Shown here: piece after piece, positions 644-12,471 of the stretch
How positions within the stretch are numbered: position 1 is the stretch's first letter
Layout: each line of letters begins with the position of its first letter
Origin: a virus
Virus record (IMG/VR): IMGVR_UViG_3300006802_000586
Span: 1 to 23,622 of that record
DNA: 23,622 nt
Direction: 5' to 3' (one strand)
Translations under genes and position numbers: made by a program
The notes under the pieces: generated by a model
Database searches by the model: none
Told to the model about the DNA's origin: nothing
Seen by the model: the letters and a program-made list of their open reading frames with translations, nothing else

Positions 644-916
644 TCACCACATCACGATGATGTTGGTCACGTCCGACCCGGAGGCGACGAGCTCCGCGGC
701 TTTGATGGGCAAGACGACTCCAGCCTTCAGTCCGGCGAGCGTTCGCGTGTTCCCGCCGTCGTCCTTGACGACAAGCGTGCCGTCAGCGTCGCCCACATAG
801 ATCGCGCGGCACATGCGCTTGCGTCCGGTTGGGTCTACTGTGCGAAGGTTCGTATCGGAAACCGTCGCATACGGGATGAACTGACCCGATGACTGTACTT
901 CGCGCATTTCACTCAT
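644..916 (-). CDS. Small virion-associated protein, 90 aa, function unknown
   Basis: The ATG overlaps the stop of the 824-aa ejection-type gene by ATGA, with a purine-rich AGGGTTGGGAT stretch upstream. The 90-aa product has a short N-terminal tail, then probable beta strands (CRAIYVGDADGTLVVKDDGG) and a C-terminal segment GVVLPIKAAELVASGSDVTNIIVMW. This looks like small phage structural proteins whose C-terminus follows the pattern 'P..a..v.asGtta..iv.lw', often found beside tail-spike or fibre genes. There are no cysteine motifs beyond a single Cys, no signal peptide and no membrane span. It sits directly before the lectin-like gene, so a spike base, linker or fibre-associated role is an inference from position only. 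Confidence 0.75.
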   Translation of the reverse strand: MSEMREVQSSGQFIPYATVSDTNLRTVDPTGRKRMCRAIYVGDADGTLVVKDDGGNTRTLAGLKAGVVLPIKAAELVASGSDVTNIIVMW

Positions 917-3387
917 GATCCCAACCCTGCCATTCTGGCCTCCATGGCCTCAGTACCCGCCGCCACTTTGCCGGCTAGATTCGGGGCGCGAGCCGCGGCG
1001 CGCGGCTGCTCCTGCTCCTGCGTGAAACTGGCTTGCATCGTCCGAATGAACTCGGGCTCAAGCGTATAATGCCCTGGCAAATCCAGCAATAGCGAGAGCT
1101 GTAGGGTGGACGAATACGACGGGGGCGCCGTCGTGTCCGCGAGTTCCCGGAGCGCGATCTCTTGCACGCGGCCATACAGGTCCGGGTACACCGTACGAAG
1201 CGCCTCGACGTGCGTCCTGTTCAGCGTGCCGTCTTCCAGGTGGTCGAGCACCGAAAGCGGGTCCTGCACGACGCCCACCGCGTCAAAGTAGCGCGCGACC
1301 TCCGTGTCCGAAACGAACGGGCGTTCGAGGTGCGGTGTCAGCGAGTTCTCTTTCACCGCCCCCGCCGGAGCTTTGCCGGCGAGGTACTCCGCGCCGCGCA
1401 TCATCGCGGCGCCCACCGCGATCGCAACGGCCGGCGAGAGCCCGTCGATCGTCTGCTCGAGACGCCGCTGAGCTGCGGCCGGGTTCGTCGTGATCTCGCG
1501 GATCGTGTCCGTGTGCCGCTCGTACGTCGCGCGCCGTGCCGTGGACGTGGCGCCGAATTGCTGCGTTTTGGCCTCGCGCGCCTTGTTCGCGTCGACCCGG
1601 TGCGCGGCTTTCTCGCCGGTGATTACCCCGCCCTTGGTGGCGCGCTTCGCGGCTTTCCCGCCGGCCACGAGCGCGGCGGCGGCAACGTCAAGCACCGGGT
1701 CCTTCGATGTGCGTGCGATGTACTGCGACAGCTTGGTTTCGATCTTCGCGTCGACCCCGGCGAACCGCTCAGCGATCCGCGCGACGGTCGAACGCCCCCG
1801 CTCGCGCACGACCTTGTTGACCATCGACCCGACGGCGCCACCGACGAGACCACCGACCGGACCGGCTGCCATCGCGCCGATCGTCGCTCCAACACCTCCG
1901 ACGTAGTAATCGCTCGGCGACGCCCAGCGGTTCCCGAGGTTTTGCAGGTCTGCCTTCTCGGCCATCTTGCGCGCGTCCCGGAGCACACCCCATGTCTGCT
2001 TGGCTTTCAGGTACGCGCCCTGCAACTCCGCGGACCCGGTGGCGGAAAGCACGTTGTCCGTTTCCGTCGTGATGAAGTCTTCAAGGATCCGATTCGCCTT
2101 GCCGAGCTCGTCAGCGTGCTTCGCGGCGACTGCGATCCCCTGGCCAGGTGCCTTCGGCGGGTACACGACCTCGTCGACCTCGCGGCGCAACTGAACCAGT
2201 TCGTCGATCGAGTACCCGCGCCCCTCTTCTACGCGCTTGCGCATGGTGCCGAGAAATTCGCTCTCGATCATCTTCGCCTTCGCGCGCTGGCTCCGTGACC
2301 CGCTCATGCGCAGCGGATTCAATACCTGGTCGTCGATGCGGTCGATCGCTTCCTGTACCTGCACGCGATCGATCCGCTTCGCGATCGGCAAGTCCTTGAC
2401 CGCCTCGGACGCCTTGCGCCGCAGGTCCCCAATCACCTCCCCGACCTCGCGCTCGGCCTGCTGTAGCTTCGGGAGCACATCGTCCACGGAGTCCAGCGTC
2501 TCCACGATCGCGCGGCCGTCTTTTAGCCGGTACTCCGAGAGCACGTCGCCCATGGCGTCGACCTTGGCTTGGGTCCCGAGATTGCGGATATCTGTCCCCC
2601 GCGCGCCCGTGGCCTTGACCATGCTTTCGCGCTTGAGCTGCTGAGCCGCGCTCTCGAGACTCTCCCCGCCAGCCTCGCCGGCGAGCTTCCGCAGACTCGG
2701 CAAACCACCGTCGAACGCTCGCCGCGCCGCGCCAGACGCCTTGCCGACAGCCGACGCGGCGACACCCAGGCCGCCACCCACGACGCCACCGAACAGCGCA
2801 CCATGCCCGGCACCGGCGAGCAGTGCCTGCGCGGTCAAGTCAGTGTTCCCCAGCGACGCCTCGCTGATGGCCTCGCCAACGCCGAACGCTGTCCCCTCGA
2901 CAATCCCTTCTGCCGCGAGCGCTCCGACCTTCCCGAGCCGCGTTGCGCCCACAGCGTGCCCCACAGCGTGCCCGGCACGCGCGGCGAGAGCTGCCGGCGT
3001 GTAGCGTGCCGCGCCCGTGAGTGCGCCCCGTGCGCCGGTCGCAGCGGCGCCCCCGCCCCCGGTGGCGAGGATCGGAGCCACGCCGCCCACGATCTCCGTT
3101 GCGGTGGTCAGCGTCGGGTTTGCCTCGCGACGCCGGGTGGCGCCTGCCGAATAGGCGTCGCCCATCAGCTTGTTGAGAATCCAATCCGAACCGCCGAGCG
3201 TGGCGCCGCGCACGACTCCCTCGGCGCCGGCGATCACTTGCTGACCGGCTGTTTCGTGCTCCGCGAGCTGCTGCTCTTTGGCCACCTCATCTTCGCTTAC
3301 CGGGAAGTAGTCGAGCGGGTTTGCCTTCGCGACCTCGCTGTCGATCGTGCCAATCTGGCCGGCTCGGTTTTTGACGTAGACTTGCAT
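913..3387 (-). CDS. Putative ejection (internal virion) protein, 824 aa, glycine-zipper segments
   Basis: The start is an ATG fused to the upstream stop as TGATG. After a charged N-terminus the protein carries several Gly/Ala-rich hydrophobic stretches, at roughly residues 98-126, 183-213, 494-524 and 653-665, separated by long charged helical regions (about 230-480). Such glycine-zipper segments are typical of podophage proteins that leave the capsid and form a channel across the host envelope. The C-terminal part (about 690-770: VARYFDAVGVVQDPLSVLDHLEDG, then VEALRTVYPDLYGRV, then a Pro-Tyr-Ser region) has a pattern I recall in large internal proteins of other podophages. I see no lysozyme or transglycosylase motif. 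It is third in a cassette with the 454- and 601-aa genes. The ejection role is inferred from composition, size and location. Confidence 0.72.
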   Translation of the reverse strand: MQVYVKNRAGQIGTIDSEVAKANPLDYFPVSEDEVAKEQQLAEHETAGQQVIAGAEGVVRGATLGGSDWILNKLMGDAYSAGATRRREANPTLTTATEIVGGVAPILATGGGGAAATGARGALTGAARYTPAALAARAGHAVGHAVGATRLGKVGALAAEGIVEGTAFGVGEAISEASLGNTDLTAQALLAGAGHGALFGGVVGGGLGVAASAVGKASGAARRAFDGGLPSLRKLAGEAGGESLESAAQQLKRESMVKATGARGTDIRNLGTQAKVDAMGDVLSEYRLKDGRAIVETLDSVDDVLPKLQQAEREVGEVIGDLRRKASEAVKDLPIAKRIDRVQVQEAIDRIDDQVLNPLRMSGSRSQRAKAKMIESEFLGTMRKRVEEGRGYSIDELVQLRREVDEVVYPPKAPGQGIAVAAKHADELGKANRILEDFITTETDNVLSATGSAELQGAYLKAKQTWGVLRDARKMAEKADLQNLGNRWASPSDYYVGGVGATIGAMAAGPVGGLVGGAVGSMVNKVVRERGRSTVARIAERFAGVDAKIETKLSQYIARTSKDPVLDVAAAALVAGGKAAKRATKGGVITGEKAAHRVDANKAREAKTQQFGATSTARRATYERHTDTIREITTNPAAAQRRLEQTIDGLSPAVAIAVGAAMMRGAEYLAGKAPAGAVKENSLTPHLERPFVSDTEVARYFDAVGVVQDPLSVLDHLEDGTLNRTHVEALRTVYPDLYGRVQEIALRELADTTAPPSYSSTLQLSLLLDLPGHYTLEPEFIRTMQASFTQEQEQPRAAARAPNLAGKVAAGTEAMEARMAGLGS

Positions 3388-5192
3388 CAGCGGCGCACCG
3401 GTACGAAGCCGTCGACGTTCGTTGACGTGGGTGACCAGCCCTCGCTGGTCGGCGTATTGCGGTGGTAGTACTCACGGACCGCAGGCGGGTAGCTGCGATC
3501 GATATTCTCCTGAGAGTCTTTCAGCCGCCGCCCCATCATCTCTAGGCCGTAGCGTAGTTCAGCGTCCGATCCCCAGCGGCCTTCGATCAGCGCTTTGTAT
3601 GCTTCTTTCTCCTCAGTCGGCGCTGCGGCACCCGTCGCGAGACGTAGCGCGGACTCTGCCGCCGCTTTGACGCTGCGTTGGATCTTGCGCCCCTGGTCGC
3701 CGGAAAACAGGTATGAGACCGACTCCGGCACGACCATGTGCGCGCCGCCCACGCCGGGGATATCGCCCTTCGGGTCGCCACCCGTGGCCGCGAAAATCTG
3801 GTCTTGCAGTTCCCGCATGTTGGCGCCGTGAAGCGCGACGTTGTTCTGAGCTTTGCCGTACCGCTCCAATGACTTCGCACCCTCGGTCCCCGGCGCAAAT
3901 TCGCCGCTGATGTCGCCGGACATCAGGCGCCGGATCTTCTCGTTGGCTTCCAGCGTCTTGCCTTGCAGCTCAAGCATTTTCAATTGCTGCTCGAGCGTTG
4001 GCGGTCCGCCACCCGAAACGGTGCGCTGCGGAATCCACTGGTATTGTTCCGTGACGTCCCCTTGAATCTCGCGCTCCTGCTCGGCCTGTAGCTCGATCGC
4101 GCGTTGCTCGAGATCATTGATCGTGGCGTCGACCCCGGCGAGGATCTTCTGGGACCGGATCCCGCTCTTGCTCTTGTGGAGTTCCATCGCAGCGATCCGC
4201 GTGCCGATCATCTGCATCTCGCGCTCGGCTTGCTCCGGGCTGCCGTGTAGCGCGATGAAGTCCGCATAGGCTCCGCGCGCTCGTTCGGCCTTCTCGCCTC
4301 GCTGCCTGAACGAGTCCCGCTGCGCCGCGATGTCACGATCGATCGCGTTTTGAATGACCTTCGATGCGTGGTTTTCGCCGCCGAGCATCCCAGCCGAATA
4401 GGCGCCCATGGCCGACGCGATCGCGGCTAGCGCGGTCCGTGCCGGGCTGTTTTGGAAAATCCGGTTCGGGTCGACCTCGCCGCTGCCCAACTCCTGCACG
4501 CGCCTCCGCGACTCCTCCGCGAGCCGCTTGGCCTCGGTCTGAATGTCGATCTGCCGCTTGCGTTGCGCATCTTGCTCGGCGCGAGCGTTCGCGATCTCGC
4601 GCTCCTGCGCGGCGAGGTCTAGGCCCTCTTCTTTCAGCGCCACATCGCCTGCGGTCTGCGCGGCGAGCTTCCGATCGATGCTCAGGTCCGACTCCGCTGC
4701 CCGGACGTCCTCTGACTTCACGAAACCCGGCTTGACCACGAACCCGGTCCGCTGGTCTCGCTCGGGCGTCGTGTGCGACCAGCGCGGTCCCCACGGCGAC
4801 GGCGCCTCGGGTTGCGGCCTGCGGATCGACTCCGGCGGAAGCTGCTCAGCGGGGCGCACAGCGGCGACCGGTGCGCCATCGGTGGTCACGCCGAGGTCAG
4901 GCACGGGCGGTCGGGCATCCGTGGCGACCGGTGCGCCGATCGGAGTCCGTGTCCCCGGCCCGAGCGCGAGCGCTGCCCGGCTCGGGTCCGTGAGCCCGGC
5001 GGGTCGTGGTACCTGCGGTGCCGTCGCGGGTAGCTCGTCCATCGGCCGCCCCTGCACCGCGCTCGCGAGCCGTTGCGACTCCGGCAGGTCCCCGATCAGC
5101 CACAGCGGCTCGCCACCGTCTTTGCGGTCGAAAACCAACGCACCACCCTCTTGGCGCACGCCTGAGAAATCGTAGGGGTTGACCGCTGCCAT
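3387..5192 (-). CDS. Putative ejection (internal virion) protein, 601 aa, coiled coil
   Basis: The ATG at 5192 overlaps the upstream stop as TAATG. Residues about 60-150 are Pro-rich and probably disordered. Residues about 160-245 are highly charged and heptad-like (EREIANARAEQDAQRKRQ), which suggests a long coiled coil. A short hydrophobic patch (ALAAIASAMGAYSAGMLGG) is followed by NHASKVIQNAIDRDIAAQ, a pattern seen in internal virion proteins of other podophages ('aI.rDI.aQ'). More helical, Gln- and Glu-rich sequence follows. The tail of the protein (about 450-601) is less repetitive. No enzyme motif is visible. It lies between the S74-like 454-aa protein and the 824-aa glycine-zipper protein, all translationally coupled, so the three probably act in one ejection complex. 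That role is inferred. Confidence 0.7.
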   Translation of the reverse strand: MAAVNPYDFSGVRQEGGALVFDRKDGGEPLWLIGDLPESQRLASAVQGRPMDELPATAPQVPRPAGLTDPSRAALALGPGTRTPIGAPVATDARPPVPDLGVTTDGAPVAAVRPAEQLPPESIRRPQPEAPSPWGPRWSHTTPERDQRTGFVVKPGFVKSEDVRAAESDLSIDRKLAAQTAGDVALKEEGLDLAAQEREIANARAEQDAQRKRQIDIQTEAKRLAEESRRRVQELGSGEVDPNRIFQNSPARTALAAIASAMGAYSAGMLGGENHASKVIQNAIDRDIAAQRDSFRQRGEKAERARGAYADFIALHGSPEQAEREMQMIGTRIAAMELHKSKSGIRSQKILAGVDATINDLEQRAIELQAEQEREIQGDVTEQYQWIPQRTVSGGGPPTLEQQLKMLELQGKTLEANEKIRRLMSGDISGEFAPGTEGAKSLERYGKAQNNVALHGANMRELQDQIFAATGGDPKGDIPGVGGAHMVVPESVSYLFSGDQGRKIQRSVKAAAESALRLATGAAAPTEEKEAYKALIEGRWGSDAELRYGLEMMGRRLKDSQENIDRSYPPAVREYYHRNTPTSEGWSPTSTNVDGFVPVRR

Positions 5193-6556
5193 TAGTACAT
5201 CCTCGGCGTGATCATCGCGTTGCCAACTTCGATCGGATTCATCGACCGCTCGAGGTCGTCGACCTGGCTTTGCACTCCCGCGCGTCCAATGTACCGTGCG
5301 AGCTCGTCGATCTGCGCTTGCTGCCGGTCGATGGTCCGCTGCTGCTCGCCGACCACCGGCGCCGTCATCAGCGCGACCCGGCCCGCGTCCAGCGTCTTTG
5401 TACCGTCGCGCGCTTCCCCGACGACGGTACGTCCAGCCGGCGTGCGCTCGAACTGCTGCGCCATCGGACCCACGTACTCGCCGCGCCCGTGCCGCTCAGG
5501 GTCTCGGTACTCGTAGCGGCTGTTTTCCGTGGCCATGAGCGCGTTTGCTGCGTCCATCGCGTCCACGTCCGGCCGGCGCGTCTCGGGGTACGCGGTGGGC
5601 CGCTGGAGCGCCGCAAGCGCTTCCCTCGCTGAATCCTGCGCTGGCCGAATGTCGGTTTTCGCGCGGATGTCTGAGGCTTTCGGATCTTCCTCGATGGCCT
5701 CTCCAGCCGCGCTCCCGGCCGCGCCTCCCGCCATCGCGCCTGCCGGGCCACCGGCGACACCGCCAACAACGGCACCGCCGACCGCCAGCGCGGTTCCTAG
5801 CGCGCCAACATTGGCTGCGTATTCTCGGGCCGCGCGGTCTTCCCGAGCGCCTCGGAGCCCCGCTTCGATCTCCATTGGCCGGTACATCGAATCGACCCGC
5901 GATTGCTCGCGCCGCAGCCCGGCGTCTAGTCCTGTCTGCATCTGCTGAAAGCCAAACTGACGCGACGCCAATTGCTGTCCAGCAGTCTCGCCAGCCCAGT
6001 CGCCAACCTGCCCTCCGATCCCAGCGTACCCGGACCCGGCGAGCCCGTAGCCCTGTAGCGCCGATGCCCGTGCGGATTCGATCTCACGCTGACGCGCTTG
6101 CGCGAGCTCGGCGACCCCGCGCGCGTTGATGTCCCCCGCGCCATACTGAGCGCCTCGGAGCGCTGCCGCGGCATCCGACCCACGGGCACCGCCGGCAAGC
6201 GCGTATTGCTGCCGCGCTGCCGCGTCGATCCCCTGGCGCATCTGCATCTCTGCAATGCTCGGGGTGCGCCCAGCGGCCGCGGCCGCATACTTGCCGGCCA
6301 GCCCAGATACCTGCCGGTACTGGTTGCCACCTTGCTGCATGATGTCCGCAGCTTGCACGTAATCGGCTGTGATATCCGGCTGCAATATGCCGCGATTCCA
6401 CAGCGTATTACTCTGTGAGAGCAATCCGGACCCTGGATCATACGGATGCACCCCAAACAGATCGTTTCCTGGTTCTGCTGCGGGTGGCACGGGTCCAGCA
6501 TCTGGCTGGCTCCATGCTCTTGTTTGCCAGGTTTCTGCGCCAAATGGTTTTGCCAT
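5192..6556 (-). CDS. Putative ejection/internal virion protein with C-terminal S74-like chaperone domain, 454 aa
   Basis: The start ATG is 2 nt after the stop of the tail hub gene, with GAGGCGGG upstream as ribosome site. Residues 60-250 are helical and rich in Ala, Gln, Arg and Gly. Residues 251-287 form a Gly/Ala hydrophobic zipper (ALAVGGAVVGGVAGGPAGAM) able to insert in membranes. From residue 295 the sequence resembles the peptidase S74 intramolecular chaperone: SDIRAKTDIRP, later YEYRDPERHGRGEYVGPMAQ, then DGTKTLDAGRVALMT, and a terminal coiled coil (QQAQIDELARYI). In the S74 family the Ser of SD and the Lys five residues on are the self-cleavage dyad; here they are S295 and K300, both present. 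Cleavage would release the last 160 residues. It is the first gene of the three-gene ejection cassette. The S74 match is by eye. Confidence 0.7.
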   Translation of the reverse strand: MAKPFGAETWQTRAWSQPDAGPVPPAAEPGNDLFGVHPYDPGSGLLSQSNTLWNRGILQPDITADYVQAADIMQQGGNQYRQVSGLAGKYAAAAAGRTPSIAEMQMRQGIDAAARQQYALAGGARGSDAAAALRGAQYGAGDINARGVAELAQARQREIESARASALQGYGLAGSGYAGIGGQVGDWAGETAGQQLASRQFGFQQMQTGLDAGLRREQSRVDSMYRPMEIEAGLRGAREDRAAREYAANVGALGTALAVGGAVVGGVAGGPAGAMAGGAAGSAAGEAIEEDPKASDIRAKTDIRPAQDSAREALAALQRPTAYPETRRPDVDAMDAANALMATENSRYEYRDPERHGRGEYVGPMAQQFERTPAGRTVVGEARDGTKTLDAGRVALMTAPVVGEQQRTIDRQQAQIDELARYIGRAGVQSQVDDLERSMNPIEVGNAMITPRMY

Positions 6557-6558
6557 CG

Positions 6559-9558
6559 TTATCCCGCCTCTGCTGGGGCGACCCAGCCGTGCCGTGGTTG
6601 TGCCGTCACCCGTAGCGCGAGCGCGGTCAAGGATACCCCGGCGCTGCTCACGCCGCTATTCTGAAGATCACTGATCGCAAACCGCACGGAGTCGAGCCGG
6701 CTGTATGGCGGCGCGTACTCGCGGCGGATCGATGCGTCGGCGGTGCCCTGGCCGAGCGAGCGATCGCCTCCGGTGTCGATATCCCATTGCTTCGATTCCG
6801 TGAATGACGCCTCGCCGTTGTACGCGGTTTGCAGCGTCAGCGAGCACTCACCGAGCAGTCGACCGAGCACGGACACCGTGCGGAATCTCAGGTAGCGGTC
6901 GAGCCCGGCCGGGTTGATATCCCCGGTCTCCACGTACATCGTCACGAAGTTGTTGCTCGCCCCGTTCGTGTCCGCGTACGGGTACGCGTCTGAGGTGGTT
7001 TTCTGGACGTACACGTACCCGGTTGTCTGGTCGATCACGGCCAGCTTGTCGTTCCACACGGCCAACCTGCCGGGCACGATCGCCGTTGTCCGGATGGAGT
7101 CCACGCTCCACTGGTTCGCGCGGTAGTCGTACACTAGCAGCCGGCCCGCGGTGGGCGTGTCCAGGTCGTCGACAACGCTCCACACCACGAGCGAATCCGC
7201 AGGCACGGCCACCGCGTCCACTACGTCAGGGTACGTGGCCAGCGTGTCGCGCACCGCGTGCCCGATGAAGTCCACTCCGGGCTCCCCACGCGGCAGACGG
7301 CAGAGTCCGCGCTTGCTCTGGAAGAAAATGTCACCGCCAGGGCCGGCCATGACGATGCTGTCTTGGGCGATGCAGCCATCCGACACCGGGAGCTTGCGCG
7401 ACGGAAAAAACGAGCCCGTTGCCGCGCGCGTTGCACCCTGGCCTTCGATGATGTGGATCGACTCGGAACCGAACGCTATCAGCTTCCCATCGCGGCTCGC
7501 GAGCCCAGTCACCTCACGGCACCCGTCCACGCGCGCCTGCCGGATCTCGTTGTGCTCCAGCGCGAAGCCCGAGCGCTTCTCAAAAGTGAACCCGATGCGC
7601 GTCGGGTCCCGCGGGTCGACGTATGCGAACCCGCCTTGATGCTCGACCATGATGTTCGGGCTCGGAAGCGGAGCGTTTTCGAGCACGCCGCCCGTCGTCG
7701 GGAGCACCTCGTTATCAGCGATCGTCGCGTCCGCAGCGGTCGACACGTACGTCGCGTTTTCGTTGAACGCGTTTGAAGCGACGATCCCGTCGCGGTACAG
7801 AACCGACCCATCAGCAAGCGACCTGTACACCGCGATCACAACCGGCGCCGTGTTAGTGGCCCGCGTCGTCGACAGCGTCGGGATCGTGAGCGTCGTTTTA
7901 TTCGTGCCGGTGCCGCTCCCCGAATGGTCCGACTCCACGAGCGGGCTCGGCGCCGAGCGCAGCAGGTTACCGCGCGCGTCGATCCGCTCGTAGACGCACG
8001 CGAACTGATAGACAGCGTTCCCCAGAGATCCGCCCGTCGTGGCCTCCGCTGCGTCAGCGTCAACGATCGGCGGGTCGTAGTCGAACGCTGCTTCCAGCGC
8101 CATGTCTCCATCGTACGTGCATGGAGTCCCGCCGACGACCAGGCTCAGCGAGCCGGCCTCAGCCGTCCGCCACATGCGCGGCCCGCTGTCGCGGAACACC
8201 GCAGCGTTCGCGCCGTAGTTACCCGATACCGTGCCCGTGGCCGCGATCCGCGTCGGGTACCCGACTAAAAATCGACCGCTGCCCAGCGACTCGAGCGGGG
8301 ACCGGCGCGACGTTGACCCGGCCGTGACCGCTTCGATGAATACCTCACCGGCCGGCCCTGGGGCGTTCGTTCCAATGTTCGCTAGATCCATGCGCAGCAC
8401 GAACAGCGACGCCCGCTGCGTCATGAACGAACTGCGGATCAGGATGTACGCCTCCCCGTCCGTGACCACCGGGCGACTGATCGAGTGCAGGTGATACCGC
8501 GGGAACGCAAGCGTTACGGCCGCAGCCGTGTCGATCGTTGCCCATCGAAACGGGCCAAGATCCAGCGTCCCGTCGTCCAGCGACCACGCAACGATCGCCG
8601 TCGTCGCGTCATACACGCACGCGCTCAGCGAGTACAAATTCCCCGTGCTCAGCGCGTGGACCGCAGCGGCTGCGAAAAGCGGTGTGAGCGACGTGTCTGT
8701 CTCCCACCCGCGCACGCCGTTGGCGCCGTCGTGCGCGAAGATCCAAATGCGCGTCGAATCCGTCGCGATTGCTACCCGCGTGTAGGTTGCCGCCGCGAGG
8801 TCGTATGTCGCGACGCTGGCGAACGAGCTATTGCATTTCACGACCCGCACATCACCCGTGCGCACGTACACGAGCAGCGGCAGACCGCCGGATGTGATCA
8901 CCAGGTCCAGGTCACCGGTCGCGTCGCTCACCACCGTCGTTAGCGTTGCCCACCCGGCACCGTACGTCCACGCGGTGGCCCGGATGTCACCGGAGATTCG
9001 CATGAACACCACCGGGCGATCCGCGTTGCTGTCGTACGCGGCTTGCATGACAGACGCGGTGTAGCCGCTGCTGATCTGAGTCACCGGGTACAGCTGCGTT
9101 CCGGTGTTCCGGTCGACGATCACCGCGTACACGTCGCTGCCCGACGTACGCCACACGACGCACACCGCAGCGCCCCCGGTGGACTCGGCTTTCACGGCGT
9201 GGACGTCGACGACCAGGTCCGTGTCCGTGCGCCCCCCGACAACCACGCGCTCGAGAGCCCACTTGTTCACGCGCCCGCACGGCGTCAGCGCACCCGACAC
9301 GCTCGAGCGTGCGTTGATCGTGTCGTCGCCGATCCAAATGCGCTCGTCTCCCATCAGAGAAATCGCGTCGGCCGTCGTCGGTGTCGTGCCGTGAAGCGCA
9401 GTCGGCGCCGCGCGCTCGAACCCGAGCCGCTTGCGGATCGCGCCGTCGTCCGTGTAGCGCACGTTGCGCGCTGCCTTCAGCACGCCGGCCGGGAGTACGC
9501 GCGGGTCGATCCCCTCGTGGGGACCCTGCAGCGGGACGTCTACGATCGTGCTACTCAC
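6559..9558 (-). CDS. Large tail hub/stabilisation-type protein, 999 aa
   Basis: The start is a GTG at 9558 that overlaps the end of the preceding gene by 8 nt, with GAGG seven bases upstream. The N-terminus (LQGPHEGIDPRVLPAGVLKAARNVRY, then GAIRKRLGFER) has the pattern of podophage tail nozzle or 'stabilisation' proteins, in which the virion protein begins with a Gly-Gly/Arg strand motif about genes being 'rows of measured values'. The rest is almost entirely short beta strands with Thr/Val/Asp-rich loops, as expected for a beta-propeller or multi-blade hub such as the T7 gp12-type or P22 gp10-type tail proteins. No hydrolase motif is seen. It follows the adaptor and a 115-aa gene and precedes the ejection cassette, the usual place for the tail nozzle or hub. 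The exact family is uncertain. Confidence 0.75.
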   Translation of the reverse strand: MSSTIVDVPLQGPHEGIDPRVLPAGVLKAARNVRYTDDGAIRKRLGFERAAPTALHGTTPTTADAISLMGDERIWIGDDTINARSSVSGALTPCGRVNKWALERVVVGGRTDTDLVVDVHAVKAESTGGAAVCVVWRTSGSDVYAVIVDRNTGTQLYPVTQISSGYTASVMQAAYDSNADRPVVFMRISGDIRATAWTYGAGWATLTTVVSDATGDLDLVITSGGLPLLVYVRTGDVRVVKCNSSFASVATYDLAAATYTRVAIATDSTRIWIFAHDGANGVRGWETDTSLTPLFAAAAVHALSTGNLYSLSACVYDATTAIVAWSLDDGTLDLGPFRWATIDTAAAVTLAFPRYHLHSISRPVVTDGEAYILIRSSFMTQRASLFVLRMDLANIGTNAPGPAGEVFIEAVTAGSTSRRSPLESLGSGRFLVGYPTRIAATGTVSGNYGANAAVFRDSGPRMWRTAEAGSLSLVVGGTPCTYDGDMALEAAFDYDPPIVDADAAEATTGGSLGNAVYQFACVYERIDARGNLLRSAPSPLVESDHSGSGTGTNKTTLTIPTLSTTRATNTAPVVIAVYRSLADGSVLYRDGIVASNAFNENATYVSTAADATIADNEVLPTTGGVLENAPLPSPNIMVEHQGGFAYVDPRDPTRIGFTFEKRSGFALEHNEIRQARVDGCREVTGLASRDGKLIAFGSESIHIIEGQGATRAATGSFFPSRKLPVSDGCIAQDSIVMAGPGGDIFFQSKRGLCRLPRGEPGVDFIGHAVRDTLATYPDVVDAVAVPADSLVVWSVVDDLDTPTAGRLLVYDYRANQWSVDSIRTTAIVPGRLAVWNDKLAVIDQTTGYVYVQKTTSDAYPYADTNGASNNFVTMYVETGDINPAGLDRYLRFRTVSVLGRLLGECSLTLQTAYNGEASFTESKQWDIDTGGDRSLGQGTADASIRREYAPPYSRLDSVRFAISDLQNSGVSSAGVSLTALALRVTAQPRHGWVAPAEAG

Positions 9559-11226: not shown

Positions 11227-12471
11227 TCAGACCGCGCAGGTGCCGTTGGCGCCGGGGTTGTTGCAGCCGAGCTGCGGGTAGGCGACCGCGCGGACCGCGA
11301 AGTCATTCGTGGTGGCCTTGCGCAACATCTTGTTTCCATCCTTGTCGAGGATGTGCGGCGCCGCTCCGGTCGAGTAGAGTTTCCACGTCGACATGTCGAG
11401 CGCGAACGCCTTCGCGATCGGGCAGTGTCGGTCGGCCCACACGTTCACCTCGCCGCCACCGGCAACGAGCTTGAGCGCCTGATACCCGAAGCTCCCGACC
11501 TTTTCCTCTTTCGAGAAGATGTGCCGACTCTGGAGAGCGATCGCCAGGTTCTGCCACTTCTCGGGGTTCAGGAAAATGTCGGTCACTCCGTTCGACCCGC
11601 TGCCCACGCGCTGGATACGAGTGCACAGCCGCTGCAACCGCTCCTCAATCCCCATGCCCGCCACTTCGGCGGTTGTGAGTCGAACGCCCCCGAGCCTGGT
11701 GACGTTACCCGTGCGGTCGACCCCGAAGAACGCGGTGGAGCTCGGCGCAGACGCCGGAATCCACGCGCTCAGCCCATAGATCAGCTCAGCGCTCGCGGTC
11801 TGCCCGTGCGTGCCACGACGGAAAACGTGGTCGCTCGTGGTCGTGCCGGAAGGCGTCGCCGATATCGTGAACGTCCCCGCGACGTAGTCGACGTCTGTGA
11901 TGTACTCGCCGCCGACCGTGCGCAACGTGCCGGAGGTCGTGCCATCCGTCGTGTAGAACTCGACCTGCATCCCCTCCTCGAGGTTGATTGCGTCCTCGGG
12001 GTTGGTCAACGTGCAGACGTTGGCCGATGGGGCCCCGGACAGCACGCCGAGCGAGTTACCGCCGTTGCCGTACATCGCTTGACTCAGCGCGGTGCCGAAG
12101 TTTGCCAGCATGCCGTCGATCTCGACAAGCTCGTTCCGGATGAATGCGCCCTTGTCGTCGCGGCTGGACTCCAACACCTTGTTGCCGATCGAGACTTCCG
12201 ACTCGAGCGTGCCCGTGGTGATGTTGAACTTGTAGCCCTTGACGTTGCCGGATGCGGCCGTGTCGCTGACCGTCTGCGCGGTGGCGAGCGACAACGCGAT
12301 ACCTTGCGGGTTCGACGTGATCACCGGCAGCGGCATGACGTCGCCGCTAAAGCTCTCGTCCTTCGGGAGCTTGCTCAGCAGCACATGGTTTTTGAACGTC
12401 AGGTCTTGGACCTGCTGCCCGGTGTAACGCTCCTTGAGCGCGTACTGAAAGATTGTCTCTGTCGAGGCCAT
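11227..12471 (-). CDS. Major capsid protein, HK97-like, 414 aa
   Basis: The ATG at 12471 has a strong AGGAG seven bases upstream and is the first start after a 33-nt gap. This is one of few non-overlapping starts, which fits a highly expressed gene. The protein begins with an N-terminal helical arm (TIFQYALKERYTGQQVQDLTFKN), then VLLSKLPKDESFSGDVMPLPV, with a central region holding long beta strands and helix-forming segments (GIEERLQRLCTRIQRV, then GVTDIFLNPEKWQNLAIAL), and a C-terminal strand-rich end (FAVRAVAYPQLGCNN). That order of N-arm, extended loop, A and P domains suits an HK97-fold capsid subunit of usual length. The downstream 'iFlnP..w..l' pattern is common in such proteins. Gene order portal-scaffold-MCP supports the call strongly. 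Confidence 0.85.
   Translation of the reverse strand: MASTETIFQYALKERYTGQQVQDLTFKNHVLLSKLPKDESFSGDVMPLPVITSNPQGIALSLATAQTVSDTAASGNVKGYKFNITTGTLESEVSIGNKVLESSRDDKGAFIRNELVEIDGMLANFGTALSQAMYGNGGNSLGVLSGAPSANVCTLTNPEDAINLEEGMQVEFYTTDGTTSGTLRTVGGEYITDVDYVAGTFTISATPSGTTTSDHVFRRGTHGQTASAELIYGLSAWIPASAPSSTAFFGVDRTGNVTRLGGVRLTTAEVAGMGIEERLQRLCTRIQRVGSGSNGVTDIFLNPEKWQNLAIALQSRHIFSKEEKVGSFGYQALKLVAGGGEVNVWADRHCPIAKAFALDMSTWKLYSTGAAPHILDKDGNKMLRKATTNDFAVRAVAYPQLGCNNPGANGTCAV

What the first reader, a model, noticed from the sequence alone, without database searches (positions are those of the whole stretch)
5192..5674. S74-like self-cleaving chaperone domain on a probable ejection protein
Peptidase S74 domains usually end tail fibres and spikes. 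Here a domain with the same order of motifs (SDIRAKTDIRP; GPMAQ; DGTKTLD; terminal coiled coil) follows a Gly/Ala membrane-zipper in the first protein of a three-gene ejection cassette. Ser295 and Lys300 correspond to the catalytic pair. If active, a roughly 160-residue piece would be cut off and the zipper would become the mature C-terminus, perhaps arming the protein for membrane insertion.
Basis: partly seen in the sequence, partly recalled or inferred. Interest (0 to 1): 0.55.

Follow-up and report, generated by a model that had tools for sequence, protein, structure and literature searches.

The report
Probable self-cutting cap, phage ejection protein
A virus of bacteria carries, on a protein that probably helps push its DNA into the host cell, a domain known from tail fibres that assembles in threes and cuts itself off; the same combination turns up in many related viruses, where the cut would leave a greasy, glycine-rich tail exposed.

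Summary
The 454-aa protein at 5192-6556 (-) ends in a genuine Peptidase_S74 (intramolecular chaperone) domain: it passes Pfam's cut-off narrowly (22.7 vs 22 bits), relatives pass more clearly (8 of 9), a family profile finds solved S74 domains of tail fibres, GA-1 and, weakly, MyRF, and the predicted fold matches the 3gw6, MyRF, GA-1 and T5 chaperones above everything else compared. Ser295 and Lys300 form the SDxxxK pair, present in 67 of 69 non-redundant proteins. The gene follows a ~1000-aa protein and precedes two large ones, an order kept in 25 of 30 testable loci. Unlike the 11 fibre-type S74s examined, these follow a Gly/Ala-rich segment. The domain also sits on P22-gp7-type 'DNA ejection' proteins and, in cultured Sulfitobacter and Sinorhizobium podoviruses, directly before large internal-protein genes; the phiM5 record says its protein was detected in particles. 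Annotators had thus seen the domain there; my ten paper searches found none discussing it. Cleavage, trimerisation and membrane insertion are untested. Verdict: new variant of a known kind.

The parts
5192..6556 (-). S74-tailed cassette protein, 454 aa (P0001)
6044..6271 (-). N-terminal core, residues 96-171 (GPSxAQ..RG..R.A..RxxE motif), shared with 51 other non-redundant S74 proteins
5705..5809 (-). Gly/Ala-rich hydrophobic segment, residues 250-284
   Evidence: weak Pfam C19orf12 match below its cut-off
5192..5674 (-). Peptidase_S74 domain, residues 295-454, with stop codon
5672..5674 (-). Ser295, predicted nucleophile; predicted cut just before it
5657..5659 (-). Lys300, predicted partner of the catalytic pair
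5507..5515 (-). Tyr348-x-Tyr350, aligned by profile with the MyRF strand HYRYK (Tyr615/Tyr617 by my reading)
5456..5470 (-). GPMAQ motif, residues 363-367
5243..5386 (-). C-terminal helix 391-438, candidate trimeric coiled coil
6559..9558 (-). ~1000-aa protein upstream in the cassette (P0006 family); 16 of 27 family members match phrog_511 'internal virion protein', the window's own copy only at E 0.015
3387..5192 (-). 601-aa protein, directly after the S74 protein
913..3387 (-). 824-aa protein, second after the S74 protein; weak match to part of a virion RNA polymerase family (phrog_2206, E 6e-4)

Best explanation
The protein is the first of three ejection proteins of a short-tailed phage, in the place held by gp14 in T7 and gp7 in P22, and it carries a working S74 chaperone at its C-terminus. 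After translation three copies meet through the S74 domain and its terminal coiled coil; the Ser295-Lys300 pair then cuts the chain before Ser295, releasing a 160-residue cap. The mature protein (residues 1-294) ends ten residues after a Gly/Ala-rich, membrane-compatible segment. The cap most likely keeps that sticky segment soluble and allows it to be exposed only after correct assembly, ready for envelope insertion during DNA ejection. Shown: the domain, the pair, the fold, the conserved gene order, the upstream segment. Inferred: ejection role in the window's phage, trimer, cleavage, shielding and membrane use.
For: S74 membership. SDxxxK kept in 67 of 69 non-redundant proteins; PMC8326128 (passages) reports that S587A and K592A abolish MyRF cleavage, equates these residues with endoNF S911 and K916, and that cleavage needs a trimer; PMC10769870 (passages) names an SDxxxK catalytic motif and shows S782A blocking cleavage. 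Gene order: protein of at least 800 aa upstream in 42 of 46, two large genes downstream in 27 of 31, both in 25 of 30 testable non-redundant loci of the window's kind. Ejection link: the same domain on phrog_598 'DNA ejection' proteins L042 (E 2e-29), PAE2_13 (6e-30), L048 (6e-22), L095 (3e-27); phiGT1_17 directly before two 'internal virion/injection' genes, phiM5_27 before internal virion proteins and noted in its record as detected in the particle. Upstream segment: Gly+Ala 0.44 in 67 cassette proteins vs 0.16 in 11 fibre-type controls, p 6e-7 (relatedness not corrected for); protein-wide hydrophobic maximum there in 19 of 66 (null 4.8%).
Against: No product was observed. The window's Pfam score is marginal and partial. 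The N-terminal core is not detectably related to gp7 (hhalign probability 0.1); the two downstream families match no known ejection family or structure convincingly. Several relatives (L042, PAE2_13, phiGT1_17) stop about 30-45 residues after the MAQ motif and lack an obvious terminal coil, so trimer-dependent cleavage is doubtful in them. In the review PMC8954989 (passages) T7 gp14 is a hexameric pore, gp15 an octamer or hexamer, gp16 a tetramer or six copies; the word trimer does not occur. Many gp7-type proteins have no S74 (five seen). In 12 of 69 proteins extra SD...K motifs exist whose use is unclear. The aligned region of the model (41-136) leaves out the catalytic strand, so active-site geometry is untested.
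Confidence: 0.5

Rival explanations
1. The domain is a true S74 fold but serves only as a permanent trimerisation or assembly domain; it is not cut off, and the SDxxxK strand is kept for folding.
For: Short members lack the coil that drives trimerisation in MyRF; extra SD...K copies without a complete domain around them show that the strand can be kept outside a catalytic context.
Against: Ser and Lys are kept in 67 of 69 non-redundant proteins while the Arg between them varies, as expected if the pair itself is selected; the K1F tail protein keeps Ser and Lys but not the Asp of this motif (SNGERK).
Confidence: 0.25
2. The protein is not an ejection protein but an external or axial trimer of the tail (needle, plug or spike), so S74 is doing its ordinary job.
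For: S74 is best known from fibres; the phiM5 record calls its protein a putative tailspike; the Pam1 record calls its gp7-type protein Pam1_12, which lacks S74, a needle protein; the window protein has no ejection-family match; S74 halves of L042, L048, L063 and PAE2_13 also match tail-fibre PHROGs.
Against: The segment before the Ser differs from that of fibres ([LIV]G at -20/-19 in 1 of 67 vs 11 of 11); S74 sits on phrog_598 ejection proteins in other phages; phiGT1 has separate fibre and spike genes further down.
Confidence: 0.2
3. Chance resemblance: the SDIRAK and GPMAQ motifs are accidental in an Ala/Gly-rich protein.
For: The window's own Pfam match is barely above cut-off and covers 24 of 58 positions; PHROGs gave no S74-bearing family for it at E up to 1.
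Against: Profile, fold and family evidence agree; 84 vs 5.85 expected motifs.
Confidence: 0.02

Closest known systems
Peptidase_S74 / intramolecular chaperone of endosialidase (endoNF 3gw6, GA-1 gp12 3gud, T5 fibre 4uw8)
   Same: Fold, SDxxxK-type pair, terminal helix, C-terminal position
   Different: Body is probably not a fibre; the 11 fibre-type S74s examined have [LIV]G 20 residues before the Ser, here a Gly/Ala-rich segment; long inserts after the catalytic strand in several members
MyRF ICA domain (7dc3)
   Same: S74 domain outside phage fibres, in a protein with a membrane segment; Z 5.9 to the model
   Different: In MyRF the domain lies between the DNA-binding and transmembrane parts (PMC8326128 abstract), so the membrane segment follows it; here the hydrophobic segment precedes it
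S74-tailed cassette proteins already on record: phiGT1_17, pCB2047-C_9, phiM5_27, PAE2_13
   Same: Gly/Ala-rich or hydrophobic segment, SDxxxK, S74 at the end; directly before large genes, named internal virion proteins in phiGT1 and phiM5
   Different: N-terminal bodies not related to the window's by the profiles used; no clear terminal coil; annotated as structural, tailspike or chaperone, without a stated mechanism in what the tool shows of the notes
T7 gp14 / P22 gp7 (first ejection protein)
   Same: Position before two larger proteins, whose sizes here (601 and 824 aa) fall in the range tabulated in PMC8954989 (passage)
   Different: 454 aa against about 196-240 aa in the rows seen; no sequence match

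Membership tests
Peptidase_S74 | Profile match above the curated cut-off | tested here: met
   22.7 vs 22 bits, partial; relatives 8 of 9 above, best 38.4 bits
Peptidase_S74 | Ser-Lys pair five residues apart (SDxxxK) | tested here: met
   S295, K300; motif named in PMC10769870 (passages)
Peptidase_S74 | S74 fold | tested here: met
   Model pLDDT 78.9; named BFVD hits at E up to 0.001 are S74, chaperone or tail-fibre proteins, prob 1.00; 3gw6 Z 6.1, 7dc3 Z 5.9, 3gud Z 5.1, 4uw8 Z 4.8, next 2.8. Moderate Z; aligned ranges start at 38-42; direct Foldseek PDB E 0.26 for 3gw6
Peptidase_S74 | C-terminal helix forming a trimeric coiled coil | tested here: inconclusive
   Helix 391-438 predicted; trimer not modelled
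Peptidase_S74 | Autocatalytic cut before the Ser | not testable with these tools
   Needs protein
S74 tail fibre / spike | Conserved [LIV]G segment 20 residues before the Ser, seen in the fibre-type controls | tested here: not met
   11 of 11 fibre-type controls, 1 of 67 cassette proteins, not in the window; controls are K1F and ten hits that I picked from 40 listed of 298 records, so K1F-like ones are favoured
P22 gp7-type DNA ejection protein (phrog_598) | Sequence match of the N-terminal body | tested here: not met
   No phrog_598 hit for the window protein; hhalign probability 0.1. Met by other S74 proteins: L042, L048, L095, PAE2_13
Podovirus ejection cassette | First of three genes after the tail-tube/hub genes | tested here: inconclusive
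   Gene order conserved in 25 of 30; the upstream family matches phrog_511 in 16 of 27, itself named internal virion protein; identity as tail hub not shown; downstream genes not named by PHROGs or Pfam
Podovirus ejection protein | Protein inside the virion and ejected | not testable with these tools
   Only indirect: phiM5_27 noted in its record as detected in the particle proteome

The most novel reading that the evidence does not exclude
A widespread way of arming ejection proteins: in many podovirus lineages, on at least two N-terminal bodies not detectably related, the first ejection protein carries a removable S74 cap fused behind a Gly/Ala membrane segment, so that trimer-checked self-cleavage both controls assembly and uncovers the segment that later enters the host envelope. 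S74 would thus be a general cap for hydrophobic C-termini, not only a fibre-folding tool.
Probability: 0.3. Interest if true: 0.75.

Novelty: new variant of a known kind. Interest (0 to 1): 0.5.

Why it matters
How the first ejection protein is kept soluble and harmless until infection, and how it enters the outer membrane, is to my knowledge poorly understood. A self-removing cap would give a concrete, easily tested answer (one serine, one lysine, one SDS gel) and would extend S74 from fibre folding to control of membrane-active proteins. It also gives a likely identity to a gene that is called hypothetical, tailspike or tail fibre in many records.

Tried and rejected
Direct relatives of the window protein: tblastn in phages gave none, viral contigs by single protein none; the way in was the capsid protein. 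The ~1000-aa protein gave no hits by single-protein search, and a relative of it none in phages. N-core versus gp7 family homology, suggested by eye, was not supported. Profiles of the three neighbours against the PDB gave nothing convincing (best 9vel Gp6.1, E 2e-5 over 93 columns of the ~1000-aa family, meaning unclear). Foldseek against the PDB gave only a weak direct hit (3gw6, E 0.26). Burkholderia phage DC1 'tail fiber' (a BFVD hit) lies in a block of fibre paralogues; in Vibrio phage 1.184 and Roseobacter phage CRP-823 S74 sits, judging by position or name, in a fibre-type gene: the domain is not on every ejection cassette. Gp7-type proteins of Vibrio D478, DSL-LC05, Pan3, Pam1 and EBPR podovirus 1 lack it. 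The genome-contig scan confirmed 2 of 89 stretches, both in MAGs. Papers: the ten searches listed none that, by title and abstract, treats S74 on an ejection protein; passages of PMC10386132 on phiGT1 hold no mention of S74, chaperone or endosialidase; PMC7139368 on the Ochrobactrum phages has none of the terms tried; PMC10783043 (passages) lists a 'chaperone of endosialidase' among proteins shared by some alphaproteobacterial phages without discussing it. The library lacks most subscription journals, and the phiM5 proteome paper was not seen.

Limits of my counts: the scan pattern required [GS][PV]MAQ[DQ], so MAQ conservation is by construction; SD...K was not required by it, but alignments A8/A9 were selected with that motif and a gap of at most 60, so their invariance there is by construction. 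80 of 110 confirmed loci were kept by the tool, and some of the 80 lie on contigs already found (for example L019 and L002). The non-redundant set (69, filtered by shared 5-mers) was made from 78 distinct proteins, the window and PAE2 included; five S74-less gp7 relatives were dropped before counting. L030 and L066 lack the motif (L030 is cut by the end of its locus). The nine gp7-type proteins were assigned by eye and by a profile built from them; four were checked against PHROGs. The ORF starts of L002 and L004 are uncertain. L006 (gene cut) and L097 were not scanned. Column labels in the printout are shifted; the E column is right.
Full report
What is there. The window is a 23.6-kb IMG/VR virus record. 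On the minus strand lie, in transcription order and with other genes between them, a terminase large subunit, an SU10-like portal, an SU10-like major capsid protein, a ~1000-aa protein (P0006), the protein of the finding (P0001, 454 aa), a 601-aa protein and an 824-aa protein. P0001 starts two bases after the ~1000-aa gene ends, and its stop codon overlaps the next start codon by one base. Its last 160 residues start at Ser295 in SDIRAK, with Lys300 five residues on.

Is it S74? Pfam scores 22.7 bits, just over the cut-off of 22, on the first 24 of 58 profile positions. That would be thin alone. Searching with the capsid protein gave 14 related loci. In the nine that hold the whole gene after the ~1000-aa gene, it ends in S74 as well: 9 of 9 reported, 8 of 9 above the cut-off, up to 38.4 bits (three of the nine are close copies). 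In an alignment of the window and seven relatives S, D, R, K of the motif, two tyrosines, MAQ and four other positions are invariant. A scan with that alignment brought 80 loci, some on contigs already seen. A profile of 44 compact domains finds a long tail fibre distal subunit (1.1e-7), GA-1 neck appendage (1.8e-7), another tail fibre (3e-5) and MyRF (0.014) in the PDB. The predicted structure of 290-454 (43 sequences, mean pLDDT 78.9) has S74, chaperone or tail-fibre proteins as its best named matches among viral models (E from 2e-4, probability 1.00). In a second-look alignment the four S74 chaperone structures 3gw6, 7dc3, 3gud and 4uw8 lead with Z 6.1 to 4.8, the next entry has 2.8. Direct Foldseek to the PDB ranks 3gw6 first but weakly, E 0.26. 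I take S74 membership as settled.

Is the catalytic pair there for a reason? Among 69 non-redundant proteins 67 have SD...K before the MAQ motif; 84 motifs were seen against 5.85 expected in shuffles. The Arg at the fourth position is replaced in several (SDKNQK, SDENMK, SDINAK). This is the pattern expected if Ser and Lys matter. PMC8326128 (passages) reports that S587A or K592A stop MyRF cleavage, that these equal endoNF S911 and K916, that cleavage needs the trimer and that the C-terminal helices drive trimerisation. PMC10769870 (passages) uses the term SDxxxK and shows S782A blocking cleavage in a Bdellovibrio fibre protein.

What carries the domain? (ii) The window's kind: a ~77-residue core (GPSxAQ ... 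RG ... R.A ... RxxE), in 52 of 69 non-redundant proteins. (i) P22-gp7-type bodies: L042, L048, L095 and Pseudomonas phage PAE2_13 match phrog_598 'DNA ejection' at E 6e-22 to 6e-30 in front of the S74 part; I counted 9 such proteins, by eye and by a profile built from them. Eight match neither (two of them, L024 and L030, are cut by a locus end); L055 and L063 of these match phrog_4287 'DNA ejection protein' (E 1e-4 and 5e-8). Cultured phages phiGT1, pCB2047-C and phiM5 have bodies that match neither profile. Profile comparison gives no support for homology between kinds (i) and (ii).

Where does the gene sit? For kind (ii) a protein of at least 800 aa lies directly upstream in 42 of 46 non-redundant loci with enough sequence, two large genes follow in 27 of 31, and both hold in 25 of 30; two of the four downstream failures (L046, L074) are due to an overlapping, probably spurious ORF. 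The upstream family matches phrog_511 'internal virion protein' in 16 of 27 members. In phiM5 the S74 protein is called 'putative tailspike protein/chaperone of endosialidase', noted as detected in the particle proteome, and followed by internal virion proteins. PAE2_13 is annotated as 'putative chaperone of endosialidase'. PMC8954989 (passages) tabulates the three-gene ejection sets of T7, P22 and others: a small outer-membrane protein, then two large ones. The window's set matches in order and, for the second and third, in size. The two downstream families themselves match nothing informative, except a weak match of the 824-aa protein to a virion RNA polymerase family (E 6e-4; 1 of 18 family members). 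The ejection role for the window is therefore an inference, in my view a good one.

What precedes the cut site? In 11 S74 domains of fibre type (K1F and ten picked from the 40 listed hits of a K1F search that matched 298 records; annotated as spike, fibre, tail, endosialidase or structural proteins, one record unannotated), the 20 residues before the Ser begin with [LIV]G in 11 of 11. In cassette proteins this holds in 1 of 67; instead Gly plus Ala make up 0.44 of the last 15 residues, against 0.16 in controls (Mann-Whitney p 6e-7, relatedness not corrected for), and 37 of 67 versus 1 of 11 show a [GA]xxx[GA]xxx[GA] repeat. The most hydrophobic stretch of the whole protein lies within 45 residues before the Ser in 19 of 66, against 4.8% expected. 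In the window it lies there too, separated from the Ser by further Gly/Ala and GEAIEEDPKA. Not all members fit: L016, L041, L063, L083 and others have polar upstream segments.

Mechanism. Most likely: trimerisation through S74, cut before Ser295, loss of the cap, and a mature protein ending just after a membrane-compatible Gly/Ala segment. The first two steps follow from the family's known chemistry; that they happen here is inferred. The last step, that cap removal readies the protein for membrane insertion, is a hypothesis that the upstream-segment statistics favour. Points against: short members such as L042, PAE2_13 and phiGT1_17 lack a clear coil, the T7 ejection proteins are described as hexamers, octamers and tetramers, not trimers, and 12 of 69 proteins carry spare SD...K motifs.

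Novelty. The domain and its chemistry are known; its presence on such proteins had been noted in GenBank records but, in the ten literature searches made, I found no paper discussing S74 on ejection proteins. New variant of a known kind.

Noticed in passing
L003, L009, L011, L012, L014, L021, L060 (S74 proteins): Extra SD...K motifs: in L003-type proteins one before and one after the Gly zipper and a third near the C-terminus; in L060 five, the last ending the protein. 12 of 69 non-redundant proteins have more than one.
   Followed up: partly
L011:15193-16209, L012:17644-18510, S74 protein of L083: A long insert between catalytic strand and MAQ half with a conserved module (DHPDSHYDYRGAYLAGEGR..GHFTDRFKQHGH.TFSTQSQYS in L011 and L012, similar start in L083); no Pfam match for it in L011 and L012.
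   Followed up: no
window:13494-15398 and 11227-12471: Portal and capsid proteins are SU10-like (PF23899 34.2 bits; PF17236 18.7 bits, below its cut-off); capsid relatives lie in 16 IMG/VR loci, while the terminase finds only distant matches, under 60% identity, in 72 cultured-phage records.
   Followed up: partly
window:913-3387: The 824-aa protein weakly resembles part of a virion RNA polymerase family (phrog_2206, E 6e-4) and carries its own Gly-rich hydrophobic stretches.
   Followed up: partly
window:644-916: 90-aa protein matching phrog_12296 'tail fiber protein' (E 2.4e-8).
   Followed up: no
window:19190-21427: Fused Prim-Pol and VapE-like helicase replication protein.
   Followed up: no
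PAE2, phiGT1, phiM5, pCB2047, Ochrobactrum and Rhizobium phage records: Similar S74 proteins carry differing labels: chaperone of endosialidase, putative tailspike, tail fiber domain-containing, virion structural protein.
   Followed up: partly
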